This document shows positions 753 to 56,601 of a stretch of DNA of 64,000 nt, piece by piece (the first letter of the stretch is position 1; the number at the start of each line of letters is the position of its first letter). The stretch is from IMG/VR virus record IMGVR_UViG_3300027763_000038, positions 1-64,000 of that record. One strand, 5' to 3'. This DNA comes from a virus. A model generated the notes under the pieces. It had not been told where the DNA came from, searched no databases, and saw nothing but the letters and a program-made list of their open reading frames with translations. The translations under genes were made by a program, and so were the position numbers.

Positions 753-1240
753 GCATGGATAAAAAAGTATTATTAGCACTAGGTGGTTTACTCATTTTAG
801 TAGGCCTACTTAAGCCAGAGTTTTCTGATATGTTTAAACCTAGGCCAGCTGTAGTAGATGTTCTTGAATTATCAGTACCAACAGATGAAGCTGTAAAAAA
901 AGAAGCTGATGATGTTGTGGTAGTTCTAAAAGAAGCTGGCATCAAGTCAGAAGCTAGGAAGCTAAGAGATTTATATATTGATTTAGCAAAGCTAGTTGAA
1001 CTTGATGGTGAAGATGAAGTAATTAAAAGTACTGAAGAAATTCGTCAGGCTAATAGTCTAGCTGGTATTATGCTCAGGTTGGATATGAAAGGTAAGTATC
1101 CAAATCTAGCTAAAGAAGCAAAAGAAGTAGTAGTCGCTTCTATTGGTGATGATCAAATTCTTTTATCAAAAGAGCTAAGAGTTAAAGCTGTAGAAGGTCT
1201 TAATGCTTTAGCTTGGGCTTGCAACGAAGGGTCAAAATAA
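749..1240 (+). CDS. Small N-terminally anchored protein, unknown function
   Basis: 163 aa. A hydrophobic N-terminal helix at residues about 6-20 (VLLALGGLLILVGLL) is followed by a long acidic, Lys/Glu-rich helical region (about 45-150) with coiled-coil-like composition. The likely topology is one membrane anchor with a soluble helical body. It is coupled to the preceding gene by ATGA and to the following C1 peptidase gene by a TAATG overlap at 1238-1242. Operon context places it with the peptidase, suggesting that they are made together. No family recognised. Confidence 0.65.
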   Translation: MSMDKKVLLALGGLLILVGLLKPEFSDMFKPRPAVVDVLELSVPTDEAVKKEADDVVVVLKEAGIKSEARKLRDLYIDLAKLVELDGEDEVIKSTEEIRQANSLAGIMLRLDMKGKYPNLAKEAKEVVVASIGDDQILLSKELRVKAVEGLNALAWACNEGSK

Positions 1241-2166
1241 TGCCACGGTATTCTCCAAAAGAACTTTACGATAACTATCGTCAAGGATTTAGTGGTTGCA
1301 TATGGGAGCAACACGTATACGACCATTTTATGGAGAATGCAAAATATCCATTGTTTGGTGATGCTAGTAAAAAAATTAAGAATTCAGGTAAGGGCAAACT
1401 TTCAACACCATACAAAAGTGTGTTGAGATTTGAGAAGAATCCTTATAATGAACGACAAACTGTCGGAGATTGTGTTAGTCATGGAACACGAAATGCTTGT
1501 GATGTTACTAGAGCAGTCGAAATAGATGTGAATAACGAAAGAGAAGATTGGGTAACCAAGGGAGCGACAGAAGCTATCTATGGTGCTAGAGGTTTCTCTG
1601 GAGAAGGCATGAGTTGCGCTAGGGCTGCTGAGTTTGTTAGTAAGATTGGAGGTATAGTTCTTAGAAAGAATTATCCAGGCATTGCTGACTTTAGTAAATA
1701 CAATGGTAATCTAGGTGCTGGCTGGGGAGGCAGAGGACTTCCAGATAAAGTATTAGACTTAGCCAATGATCATCAGATTAAGACTGCTTCACTAATCAGA
1801 ACAGTAGAAGAGGCTCGTGATGCTCTTTCTAATGGTTATGGAGTAGCAGTATGTTCTAATTATGGTTTTAGTAACACAAGAGATAAAAAGGGATTTGCTA
1901 GACAATCTGGTAGTTGGGGACATTGCATGGCTTGGATAGCATGTGATGATACTGGTAGTGAGCCAGCCTTTTTAGTCCAAAATAGCTGGGGTAAGTGGAA
2001 TGATGGAGGACATCCAGAATGGGGTCCAATTCCAGATGGTTCATTTTTAATTCATGCTGATGTGGCTGCTGGTATGCTCGCCATGAATGGATCATATACA
2101 TTTAGCAGTTTTGACGGTTTTCCTCTCCAAAAGCTACCAAGCTATGGATTTGAAGACTATCTCTAA
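1240..2166 (+). CDS. Papain-like (C1 family) cysteine peptidase
   Basis: 308 aa from ATG 1240, which overlaps the previous stop and has AAGGG 9 nt upstream; a start at 1213 would only add nine residues translated from the previous gene. The papain triad is visible: Gln73-x4-Cys78 (QTVGDCVSHG), His228 (GSWGHCMAW) and Asn248 (LVQNSWGKW), in the C1 order and spacing. There is no signal peptide and no inhibitory propeptide that I can recognise. C1 enzymes cleave peptide bonds through the Cys thiolate. In a phage the target could be virion proteins, host envelope proteins or peptidoglycan cross-bridges; which one is unknown. A paralog lacking the Cys lies at 5718-7304, sharing WGPIPDGSFL near its C-terminus. 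Confidence 0.8.
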   Translation: MPRYSPKELYDNYRQGFSGCIWEQHVYDHFMENAKYPLFGDASKKIKNSGKGKLSTPYKSVLRFEKNPYNERQTVGDCVSHGTRNACDVTRAVEIDVNNEREDWVTKGATEAIYGARGFSGEGMSCARAAEFVSKIGGIVLRKNYPGIADFSKYNGNLGAGWGGRGLPDKVLDLANDHQIKTASLIRTVEEARDALSNGYGVAVCSNYGFSNTRDKKGFARQSGSWGHCMAWIACDDTGSEPAFLVQNSWGKWNDGGHPEWGPIPDGSFLIHADVAAGMLAMNGSYTFSSFDGFPLQKLPSYGFEDYL

Positions 2167-2248: not shown

Positions 2249-2443
2249 ATGAGACTAATAGATAGAATAGCTCTAAATAGAGCAATACAAATGCTTTTAG
2301 ATTTTATCTTAGCTATCATTAAGATGTTTGATAAAAGTACTCCTGAGAATAAACCAGATGGTCCAGTAAAACCAAGGCCAAAACCCAAAAGGCCTTTGAG
2401 AGATTTAGTGGACAATATATTACCATGGAGAGATAAGAAATGA
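2249..2443 (+). CDS. Short protein with Pro/Lys-rich tail, unknown function
   Basis: 64 aa. It has an N-terminal amphipathic or hydrophobic helix (residues about 9-27, AIQMLLDFILAIIKMF) and then a basic Pro-rich segment (VKPRPKPKRPL), ending in NILPWRDKK. A GGGA motif precedes ATG 2249, and the stop is coupled to the next gene by ATGA, which supports real translation. The form (short hydrophobic helix plus basic Pro-rich tail) fits a peripheral membrane or scaffold peptide, but no family is recognised. The 82-nt gap before it (2167-2248) contains TATACT but no convincing -35 element. Confidence 0.55.
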   Translation: MRLIDRIALNRAIQMLLDFILAIIKMFDKSTPENKPDGPVKPRPKPKRPLRDLVDNILPWRDKK

Positions 2444-2781
2444 ATAAATTATTTGTTGGTTTATTTTGCGTTAGTTTATTATTTACTCAGTCTCACTACT
2501 ATGGGTCAACAACAGCCCCAGTAACTCTTGCTGGAGGCATTATTAAAGCCAAGCATGTGCAGGAAGTATCCCAAAAGTATAAAAGAAAAGATTGCCCAGT
2601 TTGCAAGGGTAAGGGTTGGTATATGAGTGGTGATGGTATTCTTAAAATTGATTGTACATATTGTGAAGCAGATAAAGGATCAATTTCTATAGGTCCAATT
2701 AAGTCATTTAACCCACAAACCCCCTCTCCAAAAGCATATTCAGCACCATGTCCCGACGGCAAATGCCCTCTTAAAAAATAA
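2440..2781 (+). CDS. Secreted small protein with DnaJ-type Cys motifs
   Basis: 113 aa. The N-terminus looks like a signal peptide (Met-Asn-Lys, then a hydrophobic core LFVGLFCVSLLF). It is followed by CPVCKGKGW (residues about 52-60) and a second CxxC (CTYCEAD), the CxxCxGxG type of zinc-binding pair seen in DnaJ cysteine-rich domains. A further Cys pair closes the protein (CPDGKCPLKK). It probably binds one zinc outside the cytoplasm or in the virion. It is ATGA-coupled to the short gene upstream. The substrate or partner is unknown. The Cys in LFCVS is not followed by a clear lipobox, so lipoprotein status is unsupported. Confidence 0.6.
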   Translation: MNKLFVGLFCVSLLFTQSHYYGSTTAPVTLAGGIIKAKHVQEVSQKYKRKDCPVCKGKGWYMSGDGILKIDCTYCEADKGSISIGPIKSFNPQTPSPKAYSAPCPDGKCPLKK

Positions 2782-2802: not shown

Positions 2803-4983
2803 ATGTTTGATCCAAGCCTTCCTCCCCCATTTCCTATTGTAGAAGATGATTTAGTTTATGTTATAACTGGATACAATAAAATTAATTGTTTACCAGACTC
2901 TAGAGAATCATCAATACAAAACTTAAGAAGATATTTAGTACAGATCAGTGGAGTTTCTGGTATTGGGGTTCGTAATATTGATGGGTTTCCATTCATATAC
3001 TCCACTGCTCAAGAAGATAATTTAATAGACATTAACTATTCTAGTTCCTATCCATATTATCAAAGTATTGCAACTACTGGATTAAATGCCAGGATTGGTA
3101 ATAACATGGAAATCCAGTTTGCTACAGGAACTCCAGCAGCTAATAAATATGGTGGAGTAGGAGGCAAATATTTTAGCGGAATTATTTCTACTACGGGACT
3201 TAATACTAAAACAGAAAATCTAATAGTAAGAGATTTTGAAAGTATTTGGCCTTATAGTGGTATTATCTACAATACTGGTTTAAATGCCCGAGTTGGTAAT
3301 AACATGGAGATTCAATTTACCACAGGTACACCAGCAGCTAATCTATACGGAGGTGTTGGTGGTAAATATCTTAGTGGAATTGTTTCTACCACAGGACTTA
3401 ATGCTAGAACAGAAAATCTAATAGTACGAGATTTTGAGACCATATGGCCATATAGTGGAGTGATATATAATACTGGATTAAATGCTGTCGTTGGAAATAA
3501 TATGGAGGTTCAGTTCTATTCAGGCACACCGGCAGCAGATAGATATGGTAGAGTTGGGGGTAAGTATGTTAGTGGAATTATTTCAACAACAGGACTCAAT
3601 GCTCGCACCGAAAACTTAATAGTAAGAGATTTTGAAAGTCTCTGGCCTTATAGCGGAGTAATCTACAATACTGGACTCAATGCCGTTATCGGAAACAATA
3701 TGGAGATCCAATTCTACTCAGGAACACCCGCTGCAAATAAATATGGTAGAGTTGGAGGCAAATATATCAGTGGTATTATTTCTACTACAGGATTAAATGC
3801 TCGTACAGAGAATCTGATAGTACGAGACTTCGAAACTACTTGGCCTTACAGTGGAGTAATATATAATACTGGACTTAATGCTAGAGCAGGAAATTTGATA
3901 GAAATTCAATATAAAACATCTTCTCCAGCAGGAGGTCTTTACGGAGGTACAGAAGTTAAATATTGGTCTGGTATTATTTCTACCACTGGATTGAATATAG
4001 TTGATGGGAAAAATATTGCATATACTATAGATAATTCATTTCCATATAAATATACTATTTTTACAGTAGATAAAGCAGTTATTGCCACAGGATCTATAAC
4101 CTACTCAAATAATAATATATCCTCTAATGGCTATAGTTCAAATGTAATATCTTATACAGATACAAGTCTTTTAATAGATTATAGTATATTATATACTTCA
4201 AAAACTAATGAAACTATTGATTTAATATCTACTTTTAAATTTTTATTGCCAGAAAATAACGTAGAATTTTATGTGCCTTTTGCTGGTTATGATGGAACTC
4301 TTTCTCGTGGTAATACTAGAGCAGAATTAGAGGCGATAGGCGGAATACTTAATACTCCGTGGGTAGGAATAGTAAGCGGTTGTCCTGGGCCGGGTACTAC
4401 TAGTCCTGCTTGTCAAGCTTATACATATTCTGATAATACCTTACCATTAACTTCACCTGCTAACTCTTATGATTTACAATATTGGGAACCAATAGAGTTA
4501 AAAATAATAGCAGGATCATTTGAATTTACTATCTCCTGTACTGGAGGTGCTTCAAGTGTATTTGCTAAATACCCTGTAGTTTTTACTAATCTTGGTACTG
4601 GTATTCCAAACCCAAGCGGAGGCATTAGCTATCAATTTGGCTCAAATTTGATTTATGAAAAATATAGATCATCAACAAATAGTTCTCATAAATATGCTAT
4701 TAATAATGTAGATCCAATGGAAATAGAATATTTTCAACAATTACTGATAAATAGTAACTCAATGAATTCTCAAAACTCAATTGCTCCACTAGTTAATATC
4801 TCTAATTTTGGATATACTAGAACATACAGGAAAAAGATAGGTATGCAATACCCATGCGAGCCAGACTGCACAACCCCTTTTTATCTTTATCCACAACCAG
4901 TATATAGATATGTAACATATACAGGATATAATCAATCAGCTTTTTCAATTGGTCAAAGATCCTTTAAAACTAAAAATGTATAA
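2803..4983 (+). CDS. Repetitive fibre/adhesin-like protein with 66-residue repeats
   Basis: 726 aa; GGGGAG precedes ATG 2803. Residues about 92-420 hold five tandem copies of a 66-residue unit. Each unit contains two sub-repeats opening with SG-x-I-x-x-TGLNA, one continuing into LIVRDFE-x-x-WPYSG and the other into NNMEIQF-x-x-GTPAA. The repeated beta-rich pattern suggests an elongated fibre or decoration shaft. The C-terminal 300 residues are non-repetitive, Cys-containing (VSGCPGPG, PACQAYTYSD, CEPDCTTPF) and rich in Ser, Thr, Tyr and Asn, as expected for a binding head. It lies between small exported proteins and a second fibre-like gene. Function as a receptor-binding or capsid-decoration fibre is inferred from architecture only. 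Confidence 0.65.
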   Translation: MFDPSLPPPFPIVEDDLVYVITGYNKINCLPDSRESSIQNLRRYLVQISGVSGIGVRNIDGFPFIYSTAQEDNLIDINYSSSYPYYQSIATTGLNARIGNNMEIQFATGTPAANKYGGVGGKYFSGIISTTGLNTKTENLIVRDFESIWPYSGIIYNTGLNARVGNNMEIQFTTGTPAANLYGGVGGKYLSGIVSTTGLNARTENLIVRDFETIWPYSGVIYNTGLNAVVGNNMEVQFYSGTPAADRYGRVGGKYVSGIISTTGLNARTENLIVRDFESLWPYSGVIYNTGLNAVIGNNMEIQFYSGTPAANKYGRVGGKYISGIISTTGLNARTENLIVRDFETTWPYSGVIYNTGLNARAGNLIEIQYKTSSPAGGLYGGTEVKYWSGIISTTGLNIVDGKNIAYTIDNSFPYKYTIFTVDKAVIATGSITYSNNNISSNGYSSNVISYTDTSLLIDYSILYTSKTNETIDLISTFKFLLPENNVEFYVPFAGYDGTLSRGNTRAELEAIGGILNTPWVGIVSGCPGPGTTSPACQAYTYSDNTLPLTSPANSYDLQYWEPIELKIIAGSFEFTISCTGGASSVFAKYPVVFTNLGTGIPNPSGGISYQFGSNLIYEKYRSSTNSSHKYAINNVDPMEIEYFQQLLINSNSMNSQNSIAPLVNISNFGYTRTYRKKIGMQYPCEPDCTTPFYLYPQPVYRYVTYTGYNQSAFSIGQRSFKTKNV
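3076..4065 (+). repeat. Five tandem 198-bp coding repeats with diverged codons
   Basis: The codons for Thr-Gly-Leu-Asn recur at 3076, 3274, 3472, 3670 and 3868, exactly 198 nt apart. Protein identity between the first four units is high, while third codon positions differ: the TGLNA codons run act-gga-tta-aat-gcc, act-ggt-tta-aat-gcc, act-gga-tta-aat-gct, act-gga-ctc-aat-gcc and act-gga-ctt-aat-gct. The fifth unit is the most diverged in protein sequence. Confidence 0.9.
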
Positions 4984-5030
4984 TAAGGTGTATCGAATTA
5001 AGATTCAATCATTTTAATAAGGTGATAATT

Positions 5031-5435
5031 ATGACAACTCCAGATAATGAAAAACTAAAAGCTATAGCTGTTAAAATTTTAGAAAAATCTAATGTACAAA
5101 AAGATGAAGTATATGGATTTGCTATTATTACTATTTTAATGATAATTAGTATAGTTCTAACGTGTGTTAGAGTTTTACAAGAATGTAATAAAAGTAAGAT
5201 GACTACTAATTCAACAGCAGAAGATAAATATTCTATGTATGGTGAACAGCTCCATACTTTTAGTGAGCGTCGAGGCTGGTTTACAAAAATGAGAATCAAG
5301 AAAATTTTACGCAGAGAAATGAACAGAGAAGATTATGAAAAGTATTCATTAAGTATTTTGAATGCTTTGTTAGAAACAGGAGAAGTTCTCACGGATGATG
5401 AAATTAAAACCCTAGTGGAGAATGCCAATGTTTAA
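5031..5435 (+). CDS. Single-pass membrane protein, unknown function
   Basis: 134 aa from ATG 5031, which has AAGGTG 6 nt upstream; the frame also offers a GTG at 5022, inside that ribosome binding site. A membrane helix occupies residues about 29-46 (FAIITILMIISIVLTCV). It is followed by a charged cytoplasmic tail with basic (KMRIKKILRREMNRED) and acidic (LTDDEIKTLVEN) segments. The end overlaps the following GlsB/YeaQ-like gene by 8 nt. It may be one part of a two-component membrane module with that neighbour. The family is not recognised. Confidence 0.6.
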   Translation: MTTPDNEKLKAIAVKILEKSNVQKDEVYGFAIITILMIISIVLTCVRVLQECNKSKMTTNSTAEDKYSMYGEQLHTFSERRGWFTKMRIKKILRREMNREDYEKYSLSILNALLETGEVLTDDEIKTLVENANV

Positions 5436-5717: not shown

Positions 5718-7304
5718 ATGTTTACTCCAACCCAACTATATAATGAATACTCCGCAAATGTCTGTGAGGGTACTCCATATGACTTGATCCGTTTGGTCAA
5801 GTTTGTAAAACATTTAGATAGACCATGTTATAATCCAATAACTTCTGGAGTTCCAAATATTTCTCCAGCTCTTACTGGTAATATTAGTGGAACTGGCGCT
5901 AATAAATTAGGTATGCCTTTTAAATTCTTGATGAGACTAGATGCTGAAGCATTTACAGAAATTCAATCCAGTATTAAAAGCGGAACTGCTCATGGTATAA
6001 GAAATGCTTGTGATATTACACGAGCTTGTGATATAGAAGTTAGCGGCAATTATCAAGATTGGGAAGCCAGAATGTCTACAGAATATCTTGAATATTTTGC
6101 AGGCAATTCTTTACCAGACTGTTTAATGATGCTTGGTCCAGACGTAGTTTCTGGCATTTTATTAGATAGTGATGGAGAACCAGTAACCAGTACTCTTGGA
6201 AGATATACATATCCTGATGTAGAAAGAACCATAGGTTGTGACCAAGAATTGTCTTGTTTTGTTACTTCCGTACCGGGTTCTTTAGGAGCACCACATTCTT
6301 GTCAATTAAATCTGTTGACTATGAAAAGTACATGCGACAGTTGTAGTCCATGCACAAGAGAAGCAGATGATCCAGGTTATGCTACAGATCCGTGTTGTGC
6401 TGGTACTTGTAGAGAGAAAATGAATTTTTGTTGTGGTCAACCACAAACAAGTAGATTTGATTTTCAATATTTAGTACCATCTGAAGATAGTTATTTTGGT
6501 GGAAATACTTTAACTGGTTGGATTGATGAAGTTTTTAAACATATAGGAGTAGTTAAAAGAAAAAGGTATGATGGATATGCTAACTTTTTAGATCCTGTTG
6601 TTTCCTCTAGTATAAATATTTGTAAAAACGAACTAGCTCTAAAATATTTTCAAAAAAATAATGACTATGATTATGTCAAAAATACTGGAGAATCCAATAA
6701 TTTTGTTCCACGAATCAGAACTATTGGTTTTATCCAAAAAAATCAAACTAGTAGTGTTAAAGACCTACTATATAATGGTTACGGAGTAGTCTTATTTACT
6801 AATGTAGGATTTCCTAATACTAGAGATTCTACTGGATTAAGTTATCCTGACCGTAATCATTATCATACATATTCCATTATAGGATATGATGATCGTAAGA
6901 TAGAATATCCAGAGTGTGTATTTTTAATTGCCAATAGCTGGGGAAATTGGAATACTGGTGGTGGTCCTAGTTGGGGGCCAATACCAGACGGTAGTTTTCT
7001 AGTTACAGAAACCCACCTAAGTAAAATGGTAAAATTTAATCAAAATCCAGATTTAATAGGATGTCGTAAAAAAGAATGTCCCGAGCCATGTGACAGTATA
7101 ACAAGAGCAATGACTAATGCTTGTACGGAAGATGATTCTTGTGTTCCTTTTTCTTGCACAGACCATCAAAGTGCTTTTGGTTTAATTATAGGATTATCTA
7201 CTCATAGTGGCTTTCCGCCCAGAACTTTGGATTACAAGCAATTCTATCCTATAAATAAGTTTAAAAACCAAGAAACTACTCCTATTCTATATTTTGATCA
7301 ATAA
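5718..7304 (+). CDS. Catalytically altered C1 peptidase paralog (pseudo-peptidase), Cys-rich
   Basis: 528 aa. It is homologous to the C1 peptidase at 1240-2166: HGIRNACDITRA matches HGTRNACDVTRA, and both end the fold with NSWG-x-W and WGPIPDGSFL. Aligned on the shared HG-x-RNACD, the catalytic Cys of GDCVSHG falls on Gly89 of KSGTAHG. The His (H383, HTYSIIGYDD) and Asn (N406, ANSWGNW) are kept. It should therefore lack thiol peptidase activity but keep the fold. A Cys-rich insertion (residues about 175-245, including CDSCSPC, CCAGTC and FCCG) and a C-terminal Cys cluster (CRKKECPEPC...CVPFSC) are absent from the active paralog. A binding or structural role on the virion is the simplest inference. 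The next gene is a solenoid fibre. Confidence 0.75.
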   Translation: MFTPTQLYNEYSANVCEGTPYDLIRLVKFVKHLDRPCYNPITSGVPNISPALTGNISGTGANKLGMPFKFLMRLDAEAFTEIQSSIKSGTAHGIRNACDITRACDIEVSGNYQDWEARMSTEYLEYFAGNSLPDCLMMLGPDVVSGILLDSDGEPVTSTLGRYTYPDVERTIGCDQELSCFVTSVPGSLGAPHSCQLNLLTMKSTCDSCSPCTREADDPGYATDPCCAGTCREKMNFCCGQPQTSRFDFQYLVPSEDSYFGGNTLTGWIDEVFKHIGVVKRKRYDGYANFLDPVVSSSINICKNELALKYFQKNNDYDYVKNTGESNNFVPRIRTIGFIQKNQTSSVKDLLYNGYGVVLFTNVGFPNTRDSTGLSYPDRNHYHTYSIIGYDDRKIEYPECVFLIANSWGNWNTGGGPSWGPIPDGSFLVTETHLSKMVKFNQNPDLIGCRKKECPEPCDSITRAMTNACTEDDSCVPFSCTDHQSAFGLIIGLSTHSGFPPRTLDYKQFYPINKFKNQETTPILYFDQ

Positions 7305-7316
7305 AAGGATATAATA

Positions 7317-10300
7317 ATGATGTCTGAATGGTGTGATTCTCATCATTGGTGGAAAGATGCTGAATTTAGTAATCCAAGTACAGCTATTCCAAGAAATCAA
7401 ATTGACGAAGTACAAGTTGATTCTTCTTTTTTTGCTTATTCTTTAATAGAAAATAGTCAGTGTTATTCTCAAATTCCATTTCTACAATGCAATAATATCA
7501 ATATTGTTTTAAGTACAGGAGGAGGAGTTACTAATGTAGGAAATATTAGAGGACTTTTTACTTGTGCAGAATTAGCTGCTGCAAATGTTGTTGCAGGGAA
7601 TAATATCATTTTTTCTCATTGGTATCCAAATACATATTGCCAGTGGAATATTAATTCTTTTTCTGGAGGATCAAATGATATTGATCAAATTATATTTGAA
7701 GGATTAAACTATTTTATTCTAACTAATAATTCTTTTATTCGTAAATCTTATATATCAGCAAATACTATCAATTTAAGTGGCGTAACTTTACAAAGCATAG
7801 ATAAATATGTTACTACTCTCAAAGCTAAAGGAGGAAATCTTTTTTCAACATTAGATAATGTCTCTTGCGTTGGAAATAGATTTCAGTATGATGGTTCTTT
7901 TTTAGTTAATAACTCTATTATTGAAGGAACGGGTAATGGAAAATTTATTTTCCAGAATAATTCTACCAATAAGGCAACTCTATCCGGATCATTTTTATTT
8001 GAAAACTGTATCAATGAAGGTAAAATATATGGTCAAAATACTTTCTTTATCTCTTCTGGGGGTAATTCTTGTGTTAACAATGGAACAGTATATGGAGATG
8101 CCATATTTAGTGGATTAGGGTCGGTTAATGCTGGTACTGTTTCTGGTACTACTATTTTTATTAGTGGAGGCATTAATAGAGGAACTATCTTAGAACCAGC
8201 TATTTTTTATTCTGGTACTTCTAATGAAGGAACATTATCAAAATATTCTTTATTTGACTATGCAACTAATAATGGACCACTACTTAGTGGTTCTAAGTTT
8301 ACATTTTCTACAAATAATTATTCTATTGGAGATGGTTCAGGAAATTTCTTATTTGAAAACAATTCACATAATCGAAAATCAATTGGTACTTCTGGTGTTA
8401 TTTCTTTCATTAATGGTTCTAATAATTGGGCAGCATTGAGCGCACCTTCTGCAACAGTCATTTTTGACTTAGCTTCATTTAATAGAGGAGGCCCAATACA
8501 AGGCATAGCTACTTTTGGATCAGAATGTGCTAATGTTATAGGGGGAATTTTAGTTACAGGTATTTTCAATAGTAATTCTATAAATAGTGGAATGATTTTA
8601 TCTTTAGGTGTTTTTAATGATTCATCCATTAATATGTGGGATGCTACAAATGCAATATTTAATAGTCGATCAGCTAATAGCGGAAGAATTATTGAAAGTG
8701 GAAGATTTGAAGATTCCTCACGTAATGGAGCTATTGTTAAGAATGGATATTTTTATGGTCGTAGTGCACATGCTTCTGGTGCTACAGCACAAATCAGCGC
8801 GATATTCTGTAATCAAGCTAGAAACGTAAGCGGATCTAAAATTAATCAATTAGCAGAATTTGGACAAAGCTCTATTAATTACGGAGGAGATACCGACACT
8901 AATGCTAGTTTTAACTTTTTTGAAAATGCTATTAATTATGGTTACATAAATAATGAAAAAGTTTTATTTTCTGGTTCTTCTATTAATAGAAATTATGGTA
9001 AAAAAATACATTTTTATAATTCGTCGATAAATGATACGACTGGTAGTGGTTATGAGGCTGCATTTTTAAATAGTTCAATTAATAATGGGTATATATCGTA
9101 TACAGGACACTTCTTCAATACTTCTCAGAATGGTAAACTAGGAGTATTAAATACAGGAATTTTTCATGATTTTGCTATAAATAATGGGTCTATGAGAAGA
9201 CCTTTGGTATCTGGACTTGAAGCATTAACATCTGGTTATCGTAAAATTGATATACTTGATAGTGGAATTAATAATGTTTCTCTGTATAACGTAGAATTTA
9301 ATGTAAAAACATCTGGAATAAATAGAGGTAATTTACAGTGGGTTTTTGATCCTCTAATAATCTTCACTACATCAGGAATATATAATACAGGAACCACCCC
9401 TTATTCAATAGTAGAGACAGGAACATTCCAAAGCTCTTATATTAGCGCAATCATTCCTAGTATAACTTTTGATGATAGCTCAATTAATAGAGGAACTATT
9501 GTTGGGTATAAAGAGATCAAATTCTTAAACAAATCTAGTAACTATGGAAACATTCGTACCTATCCTCCTATCGAGACGAACACACCATGTGTAACATTTA
9601 AAGGTAGTGGAAAAGTTTTCGATATACCTCCATCAGCCATTTTTTGTAAAAATTATGGAATTATTCAAAATGGCGCTACTTTTACAAGTGGAATTAATTT
9701 TTCGTCTATTGGTTCTGGTGATTTTACAGAGTCATCAAATTCTGGATCAGCAGAGTCTGCTCGATTTAACAAATCAAGAAATTTTGGTTCTATAAATAAA
9801 ATTGGAGTTTTTAATGATTCTTCTAATTTTGGTATAATAAATCAATCTGGTTTTTTCTATAACTCAATAAATATGGGTCCTGTATATAGTGGATATTTTA
9901 ATAAGTCTAGTAATTCAGGATCATTAGATATTGGTGAATTTGTCGATCAATCTAAAAATTCAGGAAATATTTTACAATCAGGTTCGTTTTTAAATTCTTA
10001 TAATGTTAATCAATTTATACCATTGCCATTAGCTACGTTTGCTGGAGCATCAAATAATTCTGGTATTGTAGCATTAGGCTATTATTATGGATCTTCTACA
10101 AATAGTAATACCGGGCTTGTTAATGAATTTTATGATTCATCAAAAAACAAAGGAACAGTATTTCGACAAGCAATGTTTAGTGGCTCATCAACGAATAGTG
10201 GACTGGTAGTAAATACTTCATATTTTAGAGGAAATAGCAGTAATCAAAATAGTGGTTTGGGATTATTATTTTTTTATGACTCAGCAAAAAATGAAAGTCT

Positions 10301-11201
10301 TTTGTCTGGCATTGTTAGTTTTGAAGCAGGAATTAATAATGGAGTTATTGTAGGAGATAGACCAATTTCTTTTTTTTCTGGATCTATTAATAATAATCTT
10401 ATAATTGGAGATACCACTTTTTCACTAGACTGTATTAATAATGGATATCTTAAAGGCAAAGGAATATTCTTGTCTAATAGTTTAAATAATGGTACTGTTT
10501 CTGGAGATACTTCTTTTTCTTCTGGCTGTAAAAATGCTAACATAGTCATGAGTGGTCATGCAATTTTTCTTTCAGGGTCTGCTAATGATAAAAATGTTTT
10601 TGGTACCTCTGAATTTTATAACAGCAAAAATAATTCTTTTGTATCTGATGAGTCTAAATTTTATGATAGTATTAATTTTGGAAATGCTCAAACATATGGT
10701 CTTTTTTATGGAACAGGTTATAATGCAGGTTCTGTGGTTACAGGAATATTTAATAATAGATCATCTAATAATGGAGTAGCAACTGTTGGACTATTTTATA
10801 ATGAATCTAAAAATTCTTTGACAGTTAATTCTGGAGCATTTTATAATGCTTCCTATAATCAATCTAGTGTCACAAACGCTTCCTTATATGATTCTGCTAT
10901 AAATCAGGGAACAATTAACAATGGATATTTCTATAATCAATCTTTTAATTCTGGGACAGTTTCTGTAGGATACTTTTTATTTGGAGGAACTAATTATGGA
11001 ACAATTAGTTCAAATGCTTCGTTCAATAACGCATTCTCAAAATCAGGAAATATTGGTGGTAATGCTATTTTTACTAATAATAGCTATTGTGAGAAAACAT
11101 CCATCAATGGATCTGCTACTTTTGACGGCACCTCCTGCTATGATAAAAATACTACTAGTATAAATGGAACTATTACAAAGTCACAAGACTGTAATCCATA
11201 G
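7317..11201 (+). CDS. Large beta-solenoid-like repeat protein, putative fibre or adhesin
   Basis: 1294 aa; AAAGGA lies just upstream of ATG 7317 (a second ATG is at 7320). After about 180 residues of less regular sequence, almost the whole protein is a degenerate short repeat. Ser-x-Asn-x-Gly turns recur every 15-20 residues and alternate with an aromatic position (for example FNDSSINRG, FYNSSINDT, FNKSSNSG, FENAINYG). Such Asn/Gly turn ladders with stacked Phe/Tyr are typical of beta-helix or beta-roll solenoids in phage spikes and bacterial adhesins. No catalytic residues or C-terminal chaperone domain are recognised. The final segment holds two isolated Cys (SYCEKT, TSCYDK) before the end. 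Probably a long rigid fibre. Confidence 0.65.
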   Translation: MMSEWCDSHHWWKDAEFSNPSTAIPRNQIDEVQVDSSFFAYSLIENSQCYSQIPFLQCNNINIVLSTGGGVTNVGNIRGLFTCAELAAANVVAGNNIIFSHWYPNTYCQWNINSFSGGSNDIDQIIFEGLNYFILTNNSFIRKSYISANTINLSGVTLQSIDKYVTTLKAKGGNLFSTLDNVSCVGNRFQYDGSFLVNNSIIEGTGNGKFIFQNNSTNKATLSGSFLFENCINEGKIYGQNTFFISSGGNSCVNNGTVYGDAIFSGLGSVNAGTVSGTTIFISGGINRGTILEPAIFYSGTSNEGTLSKYSLFDYATNNGPLLSGSKFTFSTNNYSIGDGSGNFLFENNSHNRKSIGTSGVISFINGSNNWAALSAPSATVIFDLASFNRGGPIQGIATFGSECANVIGGILVTGIFNSNSINSGMILSLGVFNDSSINMWDATNAIFNSRSANSGRIIESGRFEDSSRNGAIVKNGYFYGRSAHASGATAQISAIFCNQARNVSGSKINQLAEFGQSSINYGGDTDTNASFNFFENAINYGYINNEKVLFSGSSINRNYGKKIHFYNSSINDTTGSGYEAAFLNSSINNGYISYTGHFFNTSQNGKLGVLNTGIFHDFAINNGSMRRPLVSGLEALTSGYRKIDILDSGINNVSLYNVEFNVKTSGINRGNLQWVFDPLIIFTTSGIYNTGTTPYSIVETGTFQSSYISAIIPSITFDDSSINRGTIVGYKEIKFLNKSSNYGNIRTYPPIETNTPCVTFKGSGKVFDIPPSAIFCKNYGIIQNGATFTSGINFSSIGSGDFTESSNSGSAESARFNKSRNFGSINKIGVFNDSSNFGIINQSGFFYNSINMGPVYSGYFNKSSNSGSLDIGEFVDQSKNSGNILQSGSFLNSYNVNQFIPLPLATFAGASNNSGIVALGYYYGSSTNSNTGLVNEFYDSSKNKGTVFRQAMFSGSSTNSGLVVNTSYFRGNSSNQNSGLGLLFFYDSAKNESLLSGIVSFEAGINNGVIVGDRPISFFSGSINNNLIIGDTTFSLDCINNGYLKGKGIFLSNSLNNGTVSGDTSFSSGCKNANIVMSGHAIFLSGSANDKNVFGTSEFYNSKNNSFVSDESKFYDSINFGNAQTYGLFYGTGYNAGSVVTGIFNNRSSNNGVATVGLFYNESKNSLTVNSGAFYNASYNQSSVTNASLYDSAINQGTINNGYFYNQSFNSGTVSVGYFLFGGTNYGTISSNASFNNAFSKSGNIGGNAIFTNNSYCEKTSINGSATFDGTSCYDKNTTSINGTITKSQDCNP

Positions 11202-29030: not shown

Positions 29031-30924
29031 ATGGACATGACTAGAGGATATGTGCCTCTGCATGTCCATTCTTAGGTGGGCTATGTACTCACTTTTGGAT
29101 GGACTATCGCAACCGAGAACTATTGCTGAAAGATGTCAGGAAATAGGTGCAACTTCTTGTGCATTAACTGATCATGGTAATATTGCTGGATCAGTTAAAT
29201 TTTATACAGAAATGAAAAAGAAGGGGATTAAACCTATTCTAGGGTGTGAGATTTATGTTTGTGATCAAGACCCCAAGATTAAAACCAAAGAAAATAAAGA
29301 TCTGACCCACTTTGTTATTCTAGCTAAGAATTATGAGGGGTGGAAAAGCCTTATTAGAATTGTTTCTGAGTCTAACCAGCCAGATCATTTTTATCATAAG
29401 CCAAGACTCAATATAGACACTCTTGCACAATATTGTAACAATAATGTTATCGGGTTTTGTGGTCATGCCGGATCCTATTTAGCAGATAAAATTAGTGCTG
29501 ATAATCAGCTACTTGGTGACTGGAGAAATATAGGTATTGACCAAATTGGTAAACTTAAAGACGTTTTTGGTAAAGACAATTTCTTCTTAGAAGCACAATT
29601 GATGGATTCGGTCAATTCTCCTATTCAAACAGTTTTGACTGGTGCTATGAGAGATTTGGCCAAAATTACCAATACGAAAATCATCTCCACGCCAGACGCT
29701 CACTATTGCCGTAAGGAGGACGCTGTAGATCAAAGGGTGCTTCTCTGTAATAATTTAAAAACGACCTTCCCAGAGATCAGCAGGAAGATCAGTAATGATG
29801 AGGAGGTGCCTCTTGGGTGCTTTTTTACATCTGATAACTTCCATATCTTGTCTCCAGAAGAAATGGGCCATTTTCATACAGAAGAGGAAATGGAAAATAC
29901 TAAGTTAGTAGATGCATTATGTGAAAACTATAATATCTTAGATAAGCCACATTTACCTCCGTTTCCTTGTCCAGATGGGACCAATCCAGATGAATATTTG
30001 AGGCAGTTATGTCGTAATGGTTGGAGAGATAAAATTGCTAATAATATAGATAAAGATCTTCAAAATGATTATGTTAATAGAATTAAGTACGAATTAGAGG
30101 TTCTACAAGGAGCGGATCTTTCTAGCTACTTTTTAATTGTACAAGACATTGTGAATTATGTCAGAACAAATAACTGGCTTCCGGGACCGGGAAGAGGAAG
30201 TGCTGCTGGTTGTCTGGTTTCTTACTTGATTGGTATTACTAGTATTGATCCTATTAAATATGGTTTATTGTTTGATAGATTTTATAATGCTGGACGAAAT
30301 AGTAAAGACCATATCTCTATGCCTGATATCGACGTAGACGTACCTATCAATAAGAGAGAAAACGTAATTGAATATATTAAGCAGTGTTATGGGGCCGATA
30401 AGGTTTCTCAAATGATTACATTTAATACCATTAAGGGTCGTGGAGCTATTAAGGACGTATTAAGAGTATATGGTAATATATCTTTTGATGAAATGAATAA
30501 GATTACTAAAAGTATTCCAGACGAAGCTAAAATTGCAGACGATCTTCAAGAAATGAAAGAAGAAACCGGTGAAGCATCTATTATTCGTTGGGCTTTAGAA
30601 AATGAGCCAGATAAACTGAAAGAATGGTGCTATATAGATGAAAAAAATGAATTGCAGGGACCACTTGCCAAAAGGTTTGAACAGGCTATTAGATTAGAAG
30701 GCACCAAGTCCAATCAGTCTAAACATGCGGCTGGTATTGCAATTAGTGCTCAACCATTAAATACTCTATGTCCTATGGTGTACGATTCAAAAAATGATCA
30801 ACTCATAGCTGGCATGGAAATGCAAGATTTAGAAGCGTTAGGTATTATCAAATTTGATATTCTTGGCGTGGCAATGTTGGATAAAATTATGACTATTCAA
30901 GACATCTTATCAAAAGGAGACTAA
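29031..30924 (+). CDS. dnaE: DNA polymerase III alpha, N-terminal part (PHP and palm), frame disrupted near start
   Basis: AAGGAG precedes ATG 29031, whose frame encodes MDMTRGYVPLHVHS, the PHP-domain opening with its HxH motif, then stops at TAG 29073-29075. The rest (YSLLDGLSQP onwards) continues in the +1 frame to 30924. Removing the 10 nt 29073-29082 restores HVHS-M-YSLLDGL, the family spacing. PHP residues TDHGN and STPDAHY follow, then the palm with MPDIDVDV (two catalytic Asp) and GIIKFDILG (third catalytic Asp). The part ends 18 residues after that Asp. Fingers and OB fold are in a separate gene at 31812. If translation begins at ATG 29083 instead, the PHP HxH is lost. A sequencing error cannot be excluded. 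Confidence 0.78.
29070..29085 (+). other. Frame break: possible +1 frameshift, 10-nt insertion or bypass site
   Basis: The bases read tct (29070-29072), then taggtgggct (29073-29082), then atg (29083). TAG is in frame with the PHP start. AGGTGG at 29074-29079 is Shine-Dalgarno-like and lies about 3 nt from ATG 29083, so re-initiation is also possible. The take-off codon tct and the codon before the resumption point, gct, share two bases. Confidence 0.6.
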
Positions 30925-30926
30925 TT

Positions 30927-31121
30927 ATGGCAACACAAAAACTTAAGTTTATGGATGTTCCGGTTGATACTATATTCATATTTGAGAATAATAAGTACAA
31001 GAAGATTCCAGAAGAAAGAATTAGTTGCTGCACAGTTATGAACGCTGTTAGCGCCGCTAATGCTGAACAAAAAGTTAATATTTTACCACTAATAGAAGTA
31101 GAGGTTGAGACCGCCGAATGA
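30927..31121 (+). CDS. Small conserved-looking protein within the polymerase locus
   Basis: 64 aa; AAAGGAG lies within the end of the previous gene. The sequence KFMDVPVDTIFIFENNKYKK then IPEERISCCTVMNA looks like a small beta-barrel protein, with a CC pair at residues about 34-35. I believe similar short proteins occur in other phage genomes, but cannot name a family. It lies between the two polymerase fragments and is ATGA-coupled to the exonuclease gene, so it is co-translated with the polymerase. A role as a polymerase accessory is possible but not shown. Confidence 0.55.
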   Translation: MATQKLKFMDVPVDTIFIFENNKYKKIPEERISCCTVMNAVSAANAEQKVNILPLIEVEVETAE

Positions 31122-31819
31122 TCAACTATAACAAAATTTGTGTTTTTGATTTTGAAACAGATGGCTCAGATCCTAAGTCCTGTAGTCCTGTGCAAATTGC
31201 GGCTGTAATTATTGATCCATTAAAATTAGAGATTGTTCCAAACTCAGAGTTTAATATCTTTTTTAAGCCAGAAGTTTTAGCAAATGACGAGGATTATCAA
31301 TATACTACAGACATCTTAGATTTTCATGCTAAAGTAAGAGGCTCTTCAAAAGAAACTATCTTAGCAGAGTGGAAGAAATATCCCTCGCAAGATCAATCTT
31401 GGAAGTTATTTACAAATTATCTAACTATGCACCACAGTAGGTCTAGCAAGAAGAGTCAATTTAGTGCTCCTATTGCTGCTGGCTACAATATTAATCGATT
31501 TGACCTACCAATTATTGATAGGCTTAGTCGTAAATATGGTAATATTAATAAAGAGGATAGAAGTGATATTTTTTATCCAAGAGACGTATTAGATATTATG
31601 AATCTAGTTTTTTATTGGTTTGAAAATAATGGAGATCTAAAAAATCTATCTTTGGATACTCTTAGAGATTATCTTGGTATCAATAAAGATGGTGCTCATG
31701 ATGCCCTTAAGGACGTTAAAGACTGCGCAGAGATTCTAGTTCGTTTTATGAGATTACATCGTAACCTAGGAAATAAGATTAAGTTTAAAGACTCATTTCA
31801 ATCACCATCTCATGCCTAA
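31118..31819 (+). CDS. DnaQ-like 3'-5' exonuclease (DEDDh)
   Basis: 233 aa. DEDDh motifs are visible: CVFDFETDGSD (Exo I, residues about 8-18), AGYNINRFDLPIID (Exo II, about 122-135) and GAHDALKDVKDCAEIL (Exo III with the catalytic His, about 190-205). It removes mismatched 3' ends. Its place between the N- and C-terminal polymerase genes makes it the probable proofreading subunit, like epsilon of polymerase III. It overlaps the C-terminal polymerase gene by 8 nt and is ATGA-coupled upstream. Confidence 0.85.
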   Translation: MINYNKICVFDFETDGSDPKSCSPVQIAAVIIDPLKLEIVPNSEFNIFFKPEVLANDEDYQYTTDILDFHAKVRGSSKETILAEWKKYPSQDQSWKLFTNYLTMHHSRSSKKSQFSAPIAAGYNINRFDLPIIDRLSRKYGNINKEDRSDIFYPRDVLDIMNLVFYWFENNGDLKNLSLDTLRDYLGINKDGAHDALKDVKDCAEILVRFMRLHRNLGNKIKFKDSFQSPSHA

Positions 31820-33443
31820 AAAATTTCAATACAGTTGCGGGTGTTCTTTTGATATTCTGTCTGAACATGATGACAAAGACAGGATGACTCTAAAATTTAA
31901 TCCAAAAATAGAAGAGATTAGTTTGGAGTGTCAAAAGACTTGGGATCTAATTTCAGACGGAAATACTAAAGGGTGTTTTCAATTGGAATCTAGACTTGGT
32001 AAATCTATGGCCAAAAAATTAAAGCCAGAGAATATAGAACAGCTTTCTGCATTGATTAGTATTATGAGACCAGGATGCTTGGAAGCTTTTAGAGACGGTA
32101 AATCAGTTTCCAATCATTTTATAGATAAGAAGAATGGTCAGGAGTCTGTAGATTATTATCATCCCTCTTTAGAGCCTATTTTAAAGGGAACTTATGGGGA
32201 AATGATTTATCAAGAACAAGCTATGGAAATCGCTAAGATTGTAGCTGGCTTTGATCTTCAAGAAGCAGATATGTTAAGAAAAGCCATTGGTAAAAAGAAA
32301 CCAGAAGAAATGGCTAAGATTAAAATTAAGTTCTTAGAAGGTACAGAAAAAGTAGGAACAGTAGCTACTTCTCAAGCAGAAGAAATTTTCGGCTGGATTG
32401 AAAAGTCTCAGAGATATTCTTTTAATAAATCCCATGCTGTTAGTTATGCCATTAATAGTTATTTGTCAGCTTATACTAAGGCTCATTTTCCCAAAATATT
32501 TTTTGCTGCATACTTGAGATTTGCAAAAGATAAAATTGATCCTAAGGCAGAAATTAAAGAATTGGTACAAAATGCTAACGAAATGGATGTTCCTGTTTGC
32601 ATACCAGATATTAGAAACTTAAATCAACTATTCATTCTTAAGAATAATAAGATCTATTTTGGACTAACAGATATTAAAGGTTTTGGACAGTCTGTATTCG
32701 ATAAATTAGTAAAACTTAAGGAAGATAAGAAGTTAGATTTTGATACTATGAATTGGGTAGAAATACTTATGAAAGTTTTAATAAATATTAACTCTACATC
32801 GGCTAAGGCTTTGATTCAAAGTGGAGCTATGTCTTATTTAGGTAAACAGAGAACAGGAATGTTATTTGAATTTGGATTAGTGTCTGAACTTACAAAAAAA
32901 GAATCAGATTTCATTCTAGCTAATCTACATCAATATAAGTCTATCGGAGATGCTTTATATGATTTATATCACAATGGAAAGTCTAACAAGAACAGAAAAA
33001 CAATCATACTTGATTTAATTAACAGCTATAATAAACCCCCATATTCTTTAGAAGATAATCCAGACTGGATCTCTGATGCAGAAGATGCTTTCTTGGGGTG
33101 TAGCATCACCTGTTCTAAAGTCGATATGTATGATATTACAATGACTAATACAACTTGTAAAGATTTTAAGAATACCACACTAAAAGATAATATAATTCTG
33201 TGTGGAGAGATAGAGAATGTTGGTGTTACTAAAACTAAATCTGGTAAGACTCCGGGACAAGAAATGGCATTTGTTACTATGAGTGATGGAACAGGAGTAA
33301 TAGACTCTGTTGTGTTCTTCCCAGAAGCATATAAAGCTTATCGAAACATTTTGTTTGATGGTAATGTGATCATTATTAAAGGAAACAGAGCCAAGTCTGG
33401 TGATTCGTTAATAGTTGAAAAGACGTATATTCCTAAGACTTGA
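31812..33443 (+). CDS. dnaE: DNA polymerase III alpha, C-terminal part (fingers and OB fold)
   Basis: 543 aa. Residues 1-45 form an unusual Cys-containing start (KFQYSCGCSFDIL), after which the sequence joins the family at TWDLISDGNTKGCFQLESRL (residues about 42-61), corresponding to the E. coli region just after the palm. KLKPENIEQLSALISIMRPG and QRYSFNKSHAVSYA (the fingers/primer-grip area) follow. Near 460-500 an OB fold appears (GEIENVGVTKTKSGKTPG, then VVFFPEAYKAY). No intein is present: no His-Asn/Cys splice ends are seen. Together with the N-terminal gene (about 630 aa) the total matches the usual size of DnaE, so the two chains probably assemble into one enzyme with the DnaQ-like subunit encoded between them. 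Confidence 0.82.
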   Translation: MPKKFQYSCGCSFDILSEHDDKDRMTLKFNPKIEEISLECQKTWDLISDGNTKGCFQLESRLGKSMAKKLKPENIEQLSALISIMRPGCLEAFRDGKSVSNHFIDKKNGQESVDYYHPSLEPILKGTYGEMIYQEQAMEIAKIVAGFDLQEADMLRKAIGKKKPEEMAKIKIKFLEGTEKVGTVATSQAEEIFGWIEKSQRYSFNKSHAVSYAINSYLSAYTKAHFPKIFFAAYLRFAKDKIDPKAEIKELVQNANEMDVPVCIPDIRNLNQLFILKNNKIYFGLTDIKGFGQSVFDKLVKLKEDKKLDFDTMNWVEILMKVLININSTSAKALIQSGAMSYLGKQRTGMLFEFGLVSELTKKESDFILANLHQYKSIGDALYDLYHNGKSNKNRKTIILDLINSYNKPPYSLEDNPDWISDAEDAFLGCSITCSKVDMYDITMTNTTCKDFKNTTLKDNIILCGEIENVGVTKTKSGKTPGQEMAFVTMSDGTGVIDSVVFFPEAYKAYRNILFDGNVIIIKGNRAKSGDSLIVEKTYIPKT

Positions 33444-42791: not shown

Positions 42792-43269
42792 TAATTGGCC
42801 CCCACTTATCAGCAGGACATTTTTGATTTTTATAAGCCAGTTTATTCTTGTAGTTTGCTTCTCTTATAACAGTACAGCCACACAATAGGCAAGAGTTTTC
42901 TTTAAAATATTCGCAAGTATTACAGATAGCTAATCTTCCTTCTATTTCTTCTGCTGAACATAACTTATTTCCAGCTTCCGAAGGAGGATTCTCAGCTCGT
43001 TTTATTGCGTCTTTTTTAGTCTCTTCTAATACTACGTCACTTATATTTTGTGTGCTAGAAAGATGTATGGGTGGTTTTGAGTCAAAATTACCAGTATGAT
43101 TTTGATGTATTTTATGTGCTATGTCTTCTATCTTTTTAAAACACATTATTTTAGTTTCTGGATCTTCTAAAGCGACTGTTAGATCACAATATTTACATTT
43201 ATAAAGTGGTTTATTATTGAATGTGCTATCTAAAAGCTCTAAATCACAATAAGCTGTTTTATTATTCAT
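42775..43269 (-). CDS. Cys-rich small protein, zinc-binding C-terminal domain
   Basis: 164 aa. The N-terminal part has C-x6-end and a CKYC pair (PLYKCKYCDLTVAL). The C-terminal 50 residues carry a compact Cys pattern: CNTCEYFKENSCLLCGC, followed by CPADKWGP, a type that I recall from small phage proteins near tail genes. It probably binds one or two zinc ions. Coupled to the 2610-residue tail gene by ATGA (43266-43269), so it is the last gene of the tail operon and may be needed for its assembly. Convergent with 41811-42791. Confidence 0.65.
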   Translation of the reverse strand: MNNKTAYCDLELLDSTFNNKPLYKCKYCDLTVALEDPETKIMCFKKIEDIAHKIHQNHTGNFDSKPPIHLSSTQNISDVVLEETKKDAIKRAENPPSEAGNKLCSAEEIEGRLAICNTCEYFKENSCLLCGCTVIREANYKNKLAYKNQKCPADKWGPIITFET

Positions 43270-46200
43270 GATATTGAATTTTTCCCTATTCTACAACAAT
43301 AATTATTATCATCACATTTTGGTACTTGAGTATCATAACATCTTGGAATATTCTCGCAATCAAAAGTTTTCACTCTTTCTGTTTTATTGATAGTGGCTGA
43401 TGGAGGACACGAACCAACAACAGCACTACATTTTTCTATTAATTGATCTCCTTTAAAAATATCCTGTATAGTTTTTGGTCTACGATATTGATAAGTATAA
43501 GAAGCTACTGTGAATGTTACAGAATTAGAGCTTACTACTGGATCTCCCAAGGTTGCTTTGTATTTCATTCCATTATAAACCACAGGAGTAAATGTAACCT
43601 CTCCACAAGATCCGGGGACAACACCTTCTACTATATCATCAACATCTATTGTAGTTATATTATTAAAACATGGGGCAGTATTGAGCCTTACTTGTTTCAT
43701 TTGTTCTTTCCATATATCAACATATCTTCGATTAGCGTTGGAGTTAGAGGTAACAATGGGATAAACTATCGGAACATCGCAACCTCCCACAACGCTATGG
43801 GGATAACGATCATTGCCTCCAACACAAACAGATGGTTCGGTATATGTTATACAAATACTCCAAGGGAAAGAATCTGGAGCTTCTTTAAGAGCAAGTCCTT
43901 GGCCACAGCTAGTATAATCACTATTACAACACTGATCGCTACAACAACCATTACAATATCCGCAACCAATTGTTTGACAACCCAATTCTAGAGGACCATT
44001 CTCATTTGGGTTTCCTCCGCTTAAAATAGAACCTAAAATACAAGTACGAGTTTCTGTAACAATTTCCCAGTTTTGTTTTTGATCAACCATTGCAATTTTA
44101 TTGGGTTCAACCCCACAGTTATCACAACTGCTTGAAATAGAATCTGATACGGTATAGGTATCATTTGGAACAGTAATATTTATGATTGGACAAGTATTTC
44201 TAATTGTATTATTAATACATAAATTAGATCCATTAGGCATGATAATAGTCAAGGTATTATTATCGTATTCAATAGAACATAGCTCTTCTGGACACTTTGC
44301 TTCGTAGTTTGGATATGTTGAAGTAGTTTCTCCAGTATGTACATAATATATAGCAGGTGCTCCGGCAGAGCTTTCTAAAAAGCTAAATTCTTCTTCTACT
44401 TCTCCTCCTCTATCAGAAGATCCAGGGAAGGTTCTCCCTGGCTCTGTACCGTTGCAGGCTGCACTCTTAGTAACTACTATTCCATTAGGATTATATTTTA
44501 TTTTTCGTTTATGAGCTTTTAAAGAAATATTATATCTACAGTATTCAAAGCTGTAATCAAATTCATCATATTCATAAGACTCTGTGCTACATAAACAACT
44601 ACTATTATTAGAATTTCTACAATAACCGTAATCCCAATCTGCACACTCACAATTATTTTCAAGGTTTCCATCAGAAGGAGGAATTGATGTTTTCCTTATT
44701 GGATCATAATAATCAAATCCAGTTAAAGGATCTTTATAGTCTAATGTTTTACAACTTCCACAACGAGGACCTGTGCTTGTTACTTTACTTGGTATTGCAT
44801 ATGGATGAGCGATAGCGGATCCTCCTATTTTATCTTCAATATCTCCACCATTATTTCTGGTAAGATTAATGCTACCTCCCATAACAAAACAATCTTTTAC
44901 TAGACCAAAAATACCCCTAGCGACTCCTCCTAGTTTTATTGTTCTACTTGTGCTACTTAAAACTGTAAATACATTTGGATTTAAGCTATCTATACCAAGA
45001 CCAACTCCCCAATTTGTACATCCCCAACCTGGTGGTCCTCCTGCACTTGATGTGTTAGCACAACCTCCTGCTCCACGAGGAAAAGGAGAACTTGGAATTT
45101 TTCTTCCTTGAGAATCAAGAAAGTTTGGACTGCAATTGTAAAAATTATAAGTCCAATAATATTGACCAGCTAAATCCGATGGATATGGACAAGCATATGG
45201 CTTATATTGATCTTGAGCGGATTGAGATAATAAATCTGCAAGATCATTATTTCCAGCATTTCTAGCTGCTTGGGCATCTCTTTCAGCTTGGGCTATTGCT
45301 AGCCATGCTTCTCTATCTAGAATAGGCCAATATGGATAAGTGAGCTGATTGCCATCACAATCAACATCTCCATAAATTTTTCCAGAGGTAAAGGCGTGAT
45401 AAAATCCAAGATTTCTTCTTTCTAGCTCTTCGCATTTTTTTAGCAAAGTGTAATTAGCAAGTTGTCTATCACTAACAATTAAATTATTAGTAATAGCAGA
45501 TTCAGTATATATTACTCCTGATATACTTTTCCCATCTACTGTGGCTAAAGCGATTATTTTACCATTTTCTCTAACAATAGAAATATCAATAGTCTTACCA
45601 GCAACCTCTGCTGTGATAGAATCTCCTACTTTCAAGATGCCTCTTATTGATAATGACCCAGATATTTTACGATTACTAGTATCTGCTGAGGTATCTAAAT
45701 CATAAGGAATATTTTTGTATACATCTTTTGCTTCTATCTTGGGATAATTATACTTAATAAGATCTGTAAAAGAAACTGAATTATTAACATTGTCTATAGT
45801 ATTTAGATTAATCTTTTGTTTTTCTCCATACATTAGCCTAAAAAACATTTCGTTAGCTAATATGTCGGTATTTTGAACTAATGCTGTATGATCATCTACT
45901 ATACTATCATTCATTAATGATTGATATTCTTCATTTAATACAGAAATTCTGTTATTTATTGGCCTAGGAGATACATTAGTATTACAATTGGAAGCTGGAT
46001 ACAAAGTATTATCTGGGGTAAGCTCTAATCTTTGAATATATTTTAAAGATTTATTTCCTATTGGATTATAAAAACCAGCATCATATGATAGAATATAAGG
46101 GATATCATTATTTTCATCAGTTAATTCTTTTGTTTTGTTAATTTCTATATCATATGTTCCGCTGTATGAGATATATCCAGCAGTATTCATCCCACACGCT

Positions 46201-51098: not shown

Positions 51099-51104
51099 TT
51101 GATA

Positions 51105-56573: not shown

Positions 56574-56601
56574 TTGATATCCTTGTATTCTTAAAACTAA
56601 A

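What the first reader, a model, noticed from the sequence alone, without database searches (positions are those of the whole stretch)
5718..7304. Second C1 peptidase has lost only its catalytic Cys: an active/inactive pair in one operon region
The 1240-2166 enzyme has Cys78, His228 and Asn248. The 5718-7304 paralog keeps His383 and Asn406 and the shared WGPIPDGSFL, but has Gly89 at the Cys position, plus two Cys-rich insertions. This suggests that the fold was recruited as a binding or structural element, perhaps for the partner enzyme's substrate.
Basis: partly seen in the sequence, partly recalled or inferred. Interest (0 to 1): 0.6.

Follow-up and report, generated by a model that had tools for sequence, protein, structure and literature searches.

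The report
Dead papain-like twin in large phages
A group of uncultured large phages carries, a few genes after a conserved papain-like enzyme, a larger copy that has permanently lost the enzyme's cutting residue and is kept with a surface-protein-like repeat gene, so it probably now works by binding or holding other proteins rather than by cutting them.

Summary
Confirmed and extended. The 1240-2166 protein has a papain-like triad (Gln73, Cys78, His228, Asn248). The 5718-7304 protein is its paralog (hhalign E 7.5e-43), with Gly89 at the nucleophile and His383/Asn406 kept. This is no one-off: 25 distinct paralogs from related viral contigs form one clade (support 100/100), none with Cys there (G20, A2, S2, T1), while all 114 distinct active-type relatives keep the full triad. 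Decay is ordered: Cys lost once at the base, then Asn once, then His. Both genes are under purifying selection, so the paralog is a functioning pseudoenzyme, not a pseudogene. It has 24 Cys, many in two inserts that the enzyme lacks. The paralog occurs in 23 of 101 active-enzyme loci, always downstream on the same strand; 12 large contigs without it at the locus have none elsewhere, so the enzyme does not need it. Its closest genomic partner is the next gene (7317-11201), a repeat protein whose N-terminal domain was found only directly after paralogs. A glycosyltransferase family accompanies it (19/23 loci; 0/78 without). I favour a pseudoprotease recruited as adaptor/binding protein for that repeat protein over a substrate-presenting partner of the enzyme. 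The role is inferred; no biochemistry exists.

The parts
1240..2166 (+). active-type papain-like peptidase (P0001, 308 aa)
   Evidence: Q73/C78/H228/N248 and NSWG; all 114 distinct relatives keep C, H, N and Q; Foldseek to xylellain 3ois E 5.8e-7 and cathepsins
1471..1473 (+). codon of catalytic Cys78 of the active-type enzyme
   Evidence: translation, alignment
1921..1923 (+). codon of His228 of the active-type enzyme
1981..1983 (+). codon of Asn248 (NSWG) of the active-type enzyme
5718..7304 (+). pseudopeptidase paralog (P0002, 528 aa)
   Evidence: hhalign E 7.5e-43 to the enzyme family; monophyletic clade of 25 without the nucleophile
5982..5984 (+). codon of Gly89 at the nucleophile position
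   Evidence: alignment column: G20 A2 S2 T1 in paralogs, C in 114/114 active-type
6864..6866 (+). codon of His383 (retained)
   Evidence: 19/25 paralogs keep it
6933..6935 (+). codon of Asn406 (retained)
   Evidence: 16/25 paralogs keep it
6141..6527 (+). Cys-rich insertion 1 (about residues 142-270; limits approximate)
   Evidence: unaligned to the enzyme in hhalign; Cys pattern conserved in the clade
7041..7178 (+). Cys-rich insertion 2 (about residues 442-487; limits approximate)
   Evidence: no counterpart in the enzyme; C449, C469, C475 and C480 invariant
7317..11201 (+). long repeat, adhesin-like protein (gp29 family) directly after the paralog
   Evidence: N-terminal domain found only directly downstream of paralogs
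2440..2781 (+). conserved small Cys protein of the core gene block (CxxC motifs)
   Evidence: family 4, present in 86 of 101 loci
5022..5435 (+). conserved membrane protein of the core gene block
   Evidence: family 1, 92 of 101 loci; one predicted membrane segment
5422..5679 (+). conserved small membrane protein; the paralog cassette is inserted after it
   Evidence: family 6, 84 of 101 loci; three hydrophobic segments; weak Transgly_assoc match, below cut-off
2803..4983 (+). fibre-like repeat protein between enzyme and paralog; seen only in paralog-bearing loci
   Evidence: family 49: 9/23 paralog loci, 0/78 others

Best explanation
The 5718-7304 gene is a single-origin pseudoprotease of a phage papain-like family. 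Shown by sequence: after duplication of the peptidase, the nucleophile Cys was lost at the base of the clade, two Cys-rich inserts were gained, and the Asn and then the His were lost in one sub-clade, while the protein stayed under purifying selection. Inferred: it cannot cleave peptides. Its former substrate groove and its Cys-rich inserts act as a binding or attachment surface for the product of the directly adjacent gene, a repeat protein (7317-11201), as an adaptor, anchor or assembly partner of an adhesin-like surface protein that travels with sugar-modifying genes. The active-type enzyme upstream works independently in the conserved gene block of small membrane proteins.
For: No Cys at the nucleophile in 25 distinct paralogs, against 114/114 Cys in active-type relatives. 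One clade, support 100/100; Cys lost once, Asn once in 9 rows, His twice and only among Asn-less rows. dN/dS 0.08-0.25 in most pairs (0.38 maximum), so it is not a pseudogene. Two conserved Cys-rich inserts. The next gene starts within a few bases of the paralog's end (window 7304/7317), and its N-terminal domain was found nowhere else (E at most 6e-18 after paralogs, next best 0.0046; whole-contig search of 18 large contigs). Glycosyltransferase family 34 in 19/23 paralog loci vs 0/78 others, Fisher p 5e-17. Distance correlation of the paralog with the downstream protein 0.59, with the enzyme 0.41, with most controls 0.38-0.44. Enzyme without paralog in 78/101 loci and in 12 large contigs searched whole.
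Against: No biochemical or virion data. Co-location can mean co-transfer rather than physical contact. The three deepest paralogs (L086, L112, L115) lack the repeat protein and are followed directly by a glycosyltransferase. In the Asn-less sub-clade the next gene is of other families, whose N-termini resemble gp29 only weakly or not at all (hhalign probability at most 24%). The window's own cassette has no family-34 glycosyltransferase, only other sugar-related genes further on. His and Asn are still kept in 19 and 16 of 25. The distance comparison uses only 11 loci and was not significance-tested. Fisher counts treat related phages as independent.
Confidence: 0.55

Rival explanations
1. Partner or regulator of the active enzyme: the dead copy binds the same substrate or the enzyme itself and presents, protects or regulates.
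For: All 23 paralog loci in the deduplicated set have an active-type gene 1.2-9 kb upstream on the same strand; the four loci without one are cut short upstream by the contig end. Dead/active protease pairs that work this way are known in other folds (CspC in C. difficile, PMC6636752).
Against: The enzyme occurs without the paralog in 78/101 loci and 12 large contigs. Paralog distances track the enzyme no better than control genes. The paralog is linked more exclusively to the downstream repeat protein.
Confidence: 0.2
2. Active enzyme with another mechanism: Ser or Thr near position 89, or His/Asn-based chemistry, replaces the Cys nucleophile.
For: His383, Asn406 and Gln83 are kept in the window copy. 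Ser88/Thr90 flank Gly89, and L112/L115 have Ser at the position itself. Silicateins are Ser-bearing papain-like enzymes (cited in PMC4671257).
Against: The flanking Ser and Thr are not conserved (Gly or Ala, and Val, in some members). Gly cannot be a nucleophile. Asn and then His are lost while the protein stays constrained.
Confidence: 0.1
3. Purely structural or antigen-like surface protein (part of the fibre or a decoration) with no specific binding groove left; fold kept for stability only.
For: Cys-rich inserts, adhesin and glycosyltransferase neighbours, loss of all triad residues in some members.
Against: High conservation of the core around His/Asn (NGYGVVLFTNVGFPNTRDSTGLSYPDR) in the clade suggests a kept surface.
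Confidence: 0.12
4. Decaying pseudogene or assembly artefact.
For: Loss of a catalytic residue.
Against: 25 distinct full-length open frames from independent contigs and dN/dS well below 1.
Confidence: 0.02

Closest known systems
Papain family C1A peptidases (xylellain 3ois, cathepsins, papain)
   Same: Order Gln-Cys-His-Asn, NSWG motif, central helix starting at the nucleophile; best Foldseek matches of the active-type model
   Different: No detectable sequence match in Pfam C1 above cut-off or in PDB sequences; no prodomain or signal peptide recognised; the paralog lacks the nucleophile
SERA5 of Plasmodium falciparum (papain-like pseudoprotease)
   Same: Papain-like domain without the catalytic Cys; essential but non-enzymatic role (PMC4671257); SERA5E appears among the paralog model's weak Foldseek matches
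   Different: Ser, not Gly, at the position; eukaryotic, different accessory domains
Soybean P34 / Gly m Bd 30K (from memory, not tested here)
   Same: Papain-like protein with Gly in place of the catalytic Cys, reported as a ligand-binding protein
   Different: Plant protein; no Cys-rich inserts of this kind; resemblance recalled only
CspC pseudoprotease of Clostridioides difficile
   Same: Catalytically dead protease that works as a signalling partner (PMC6636752)
   Different: Subtilisin fold (from memory), different biology
Phage tail-associated NlpC/P60 papain-fold peptidases
   Same: Papain-like fold used by large phages (PMC7824862)
   Different: Peptidoglycan hydrolases of another family; active

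Membership tests
C1A papain-like peptidase (for 1240-2166) | Catalytic order Gln ... Cys ... His ... Asn | tested here: met
   Q73, C78, H228, N248 invariant in 25 diverse members and in all 114 distinct members
C1A papain-like peptidase (for 1240-2166) | Papain-like fold | tested here: met
   All listed Foldseek hits are papain-like, E down to 5.8e-7, but model pLDDT 62.6 and TM 0.4-0.6
C1A papain-like peptidase (for 1240-2166) | Match to Pfam Peptidase_C1 above cut-off | tested here: not met
   (best C1 E 0.011 in one member)
C1A papain-like peptidase (for 1240-2166) | Peptidase activity | not testable with these tools
   no biochemistry
C1A peptidase (for 5718-7304) | Catalytic Cys | tested here: not met
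   Gly89; 0 of 25 paralogs have Cys in that column
Papain-like pseudoprotease (for 5718-7304) | Homology to an active-type family with loss of the nucleophile | tested here: met
Papain-like pseudoprotease (for 5718-7304) | Retained under selection | tested here: met
   dN/dS 0.08-0.38
Papain-like pseudoprotease (for 5718-7304) | No residual catalysis | not testable with these tools
   needs an assay
Papain-like pseudoprotease (for 5718-7304) | No other Cys at the nucleophile place in 3D | tested here: inconclusive

The most novel reading that the evidence does not exclude
A papain fold turned into the attachment or assembly module of a phage surface protein: the dead groove holds a peptide of the downstream repeat protein, so that a protease lineage has become a modular adaptor which is exchanged together with its adhesin and glycosylation genes.
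Probability: 0.2. Interest if true: 0.75.

Novelty: new variant of a known kind. Interest (0 to 1): 0.5.

Why it matters
Dead proteases with new roles are well known in eukaryotes, but I found no described papain-like pseudoprotease in phages: no relative in 50,697 named phage records and nothing in the held papers, though the literature search was limited. The clade offers a rare graded series (full triad, no Cys, no Cys/Asn, no Cys/Asn/His) in constrained proteins with a conserved neighbour. This makes the question of how an enzyme fold becomes a binding module testable by ordinary expression and pull-down.

Tried and rejected
Sequence searches of Pfam, PHROGs, PDB sequences, named phages and (paralog only) plasmids gave no significant family for the two proteins. 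Pseudogene: rejected by dN/dS and 25 intact frames. Alternative nucleophile: flanking Ser/Thr not conserved and His/Asn lost later. Paralog elsewhere in genomes that lack it at the locus: not found in 12 large contigs. Remote homology between the gp29 N-terminus and the other downstream proteins: suggestive but not significant. Terminase marker PF03354 gave no match in 8 large contigs, so nothing was learnt about phage type. The weak PDB match to a phage tail protein (3pqi, E 0.27) was judged chance.

Full report
Observation. The window belongs to a 108,770-base virus record. The protein at 1240-2166 has Gln73, Cys78, His228 and Asn248 with an NSWG motif; the protein at 5718-7304 has Gln83, Gly89, His383 and Asn406 and shares WGPIPDGSFL exactly. 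They are homologous over most of the enzyme's length (BLASTP 2e-24; hhalign E 7.5e-43). The paralog adds two Cys-rich stretches, about residues 142-270 and 442-487, and has 24 Cys.

Fold. No Pfam or PHROGs model and no PDB sequence recognises either protein above threshold. The AlphaFold model of the enzyme (pLDDT 62.6) is closest to xylellain and cathepsins (Foldseek E 5.8e-7, 167 matches at E 0.001 or better, all 50 listed being papain-like). The paralog model (pLDDT 65.6, with core residues 61-140 and 331-440 mostly above 70) reaches the same family weakly (E 3e-3), as expected with long inserts. The predicted central helix starts at Cys78 in the enzyme and at residue 86, next to Gly89, in the paralog.

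Clade-wide loss. Scans of IMG/VR found more than 500 relatives of the enzyme and, after removal of duplicates, 25 distinct paralogs. Across one alignment, 114 of 114 active-type proteins have Cys, His, Asn and Gln. Paralogs have Gly 20, Ala 2, Ser 2, Thr 1 at the nucleophile; His is kept in 19, Asn in 16, Gln in 22. The paralogs form one clade with support 100/100 on a long stem. On the tree Cys is lost once, Asn once (9 rows), and His twice, only within the Asn-less rows. Both genes are constrained: dN/dS 0.08-0.38 for paralogs and about 0.01-0.12 for the enzyme.

Active-type enzyme under selection. In some genomes the active-type gene carries inteins at three different sites, each at or near a triad residue: directly before the nucleophile Cys (L137, L139, L140), directly after the catalytic His (L098), and three residues after the catalytic Asn (L104, L105). 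Junctions carry the expected splice residues, and Pfam finds intein-splicing and/or LAGLIDADG domains. Inteins usually sit in conserved functional sites (established knowledge), which fits a conserved, catalytically important enzyme. None is present in the 25 paralogs.

Neighbourhood. Of 101 distinct enzyme loci with at least 6 kb downstream, 23 have the paralog, always downstream on the same strand, 1.2-9 kb away. Twelve contigs of 111-244 kb without it at the locus have no copy elsewhere. The core block is small proteins, several with predicted membrane segments (families 5, 3, 2), enzyme, then families 4, 1, 6 and usually a dCMP deaminase (family 7). In 42 loci without the paralog, family 6 is followed directly by the deaminase; in the window and most gp29-type loci the paralog plus one long repeat protein lie exactly between them. 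That repeat protein starts within about a dozen bases of the paralog's end, and its N-terminal domain was found only directly after paralogs, also in whole-contig searches. A glycosyltransferase family follows in 19 of 23 paralog loci and is absent from the 78 others (Fisher p 5e-17; the loci are related, so the p-value overstates independence). Pairwise protein distances of the paralog correlate best with this repeat protein (0.59), and with the enzyme only as with control genes (0.41 vs mostly 0.38-0.44; 11 loci).

Interpretation. Shown: a constrained, single-origin paralog clade without the catalytic nucleophile, tied by genomic position to a specific repeat protein. Inferred: loss of proteolysis, and a new role as a binding or adaptor protein for that repeat protein. 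The idea that it serves the partner enzyme's substrate remains possible but is less supported, because the enzyme is common without it. What the active-type enzyme cuts is unknown; the small membrane proteins beside it would fit a role at the cell envelope, for instance lysis, but this is speculation.

Comparison. It works like known papain-fold pseudoproteases such as SERA5, whose role is essential but non-enzymatic (PMC4671257). As an active C1 peptidase it fails the defining feature. As a papain-like pseudoprotease it meets homology, loss of nucleophile and retention under selection; absence of activity is untested. I found no phage example in the papers and phage records searched, but that search was limited.

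Noticed in passing
L137, L139, L140 (ORFs at 1-1980, 8648-10687, 3-1976); L098:6710-8728; L104:4998-6944; L105:6-1952: Three different inteins invade the active-type papain-like enzyme, each at or beside a different catalytic-triad residue (before Cys78, after His228, three residues after Asn248). A neat case of inteins targeting every catalytic residue of one phage enzyme.
   Followed up: partly
L237, L238, L239, L240: Active-type relatives sit on contigs binned as Flavobacteriales, SAR202 and Lokiarchaeota genomes. Their neighbours include phage-type families, so these are probably phage contigs misbinned or true hosts; host not resolved.
   Followed up: no
L112:3733-6027 and L115:9950-12181: Deep-branching paralogs with Ser at the nucleophile position, His and Asn kept, and long C-terminal extensions: the best candidates for residual or altered chemistry in the clade.
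   Followed up: no
window 29050-30924 and 31812-33443: DNA polymerase split over two genes: the first matches the N-terminal half and the second the C-terminal half of one PHROG polymerase family (phrog_405, positions 53-614 and 622-1068), with about 0.9 kb and a small ORF (31118-31819) between.
   Followed up: no
window 2803-4983: Protein made of near-identical repeats (STTGLNARTENLIVRDFE..WPYSG), present only in paralog-bearing loci (9/23 vs 0/78).
   Followed up: no
window 43266-62612, minus strand: Three very large ORFs (2610, 1822 and 1455 aa); the first two have no Pfam match, the third was not searched. They lie next to a tape-measure-like protein.
   Followed up: no
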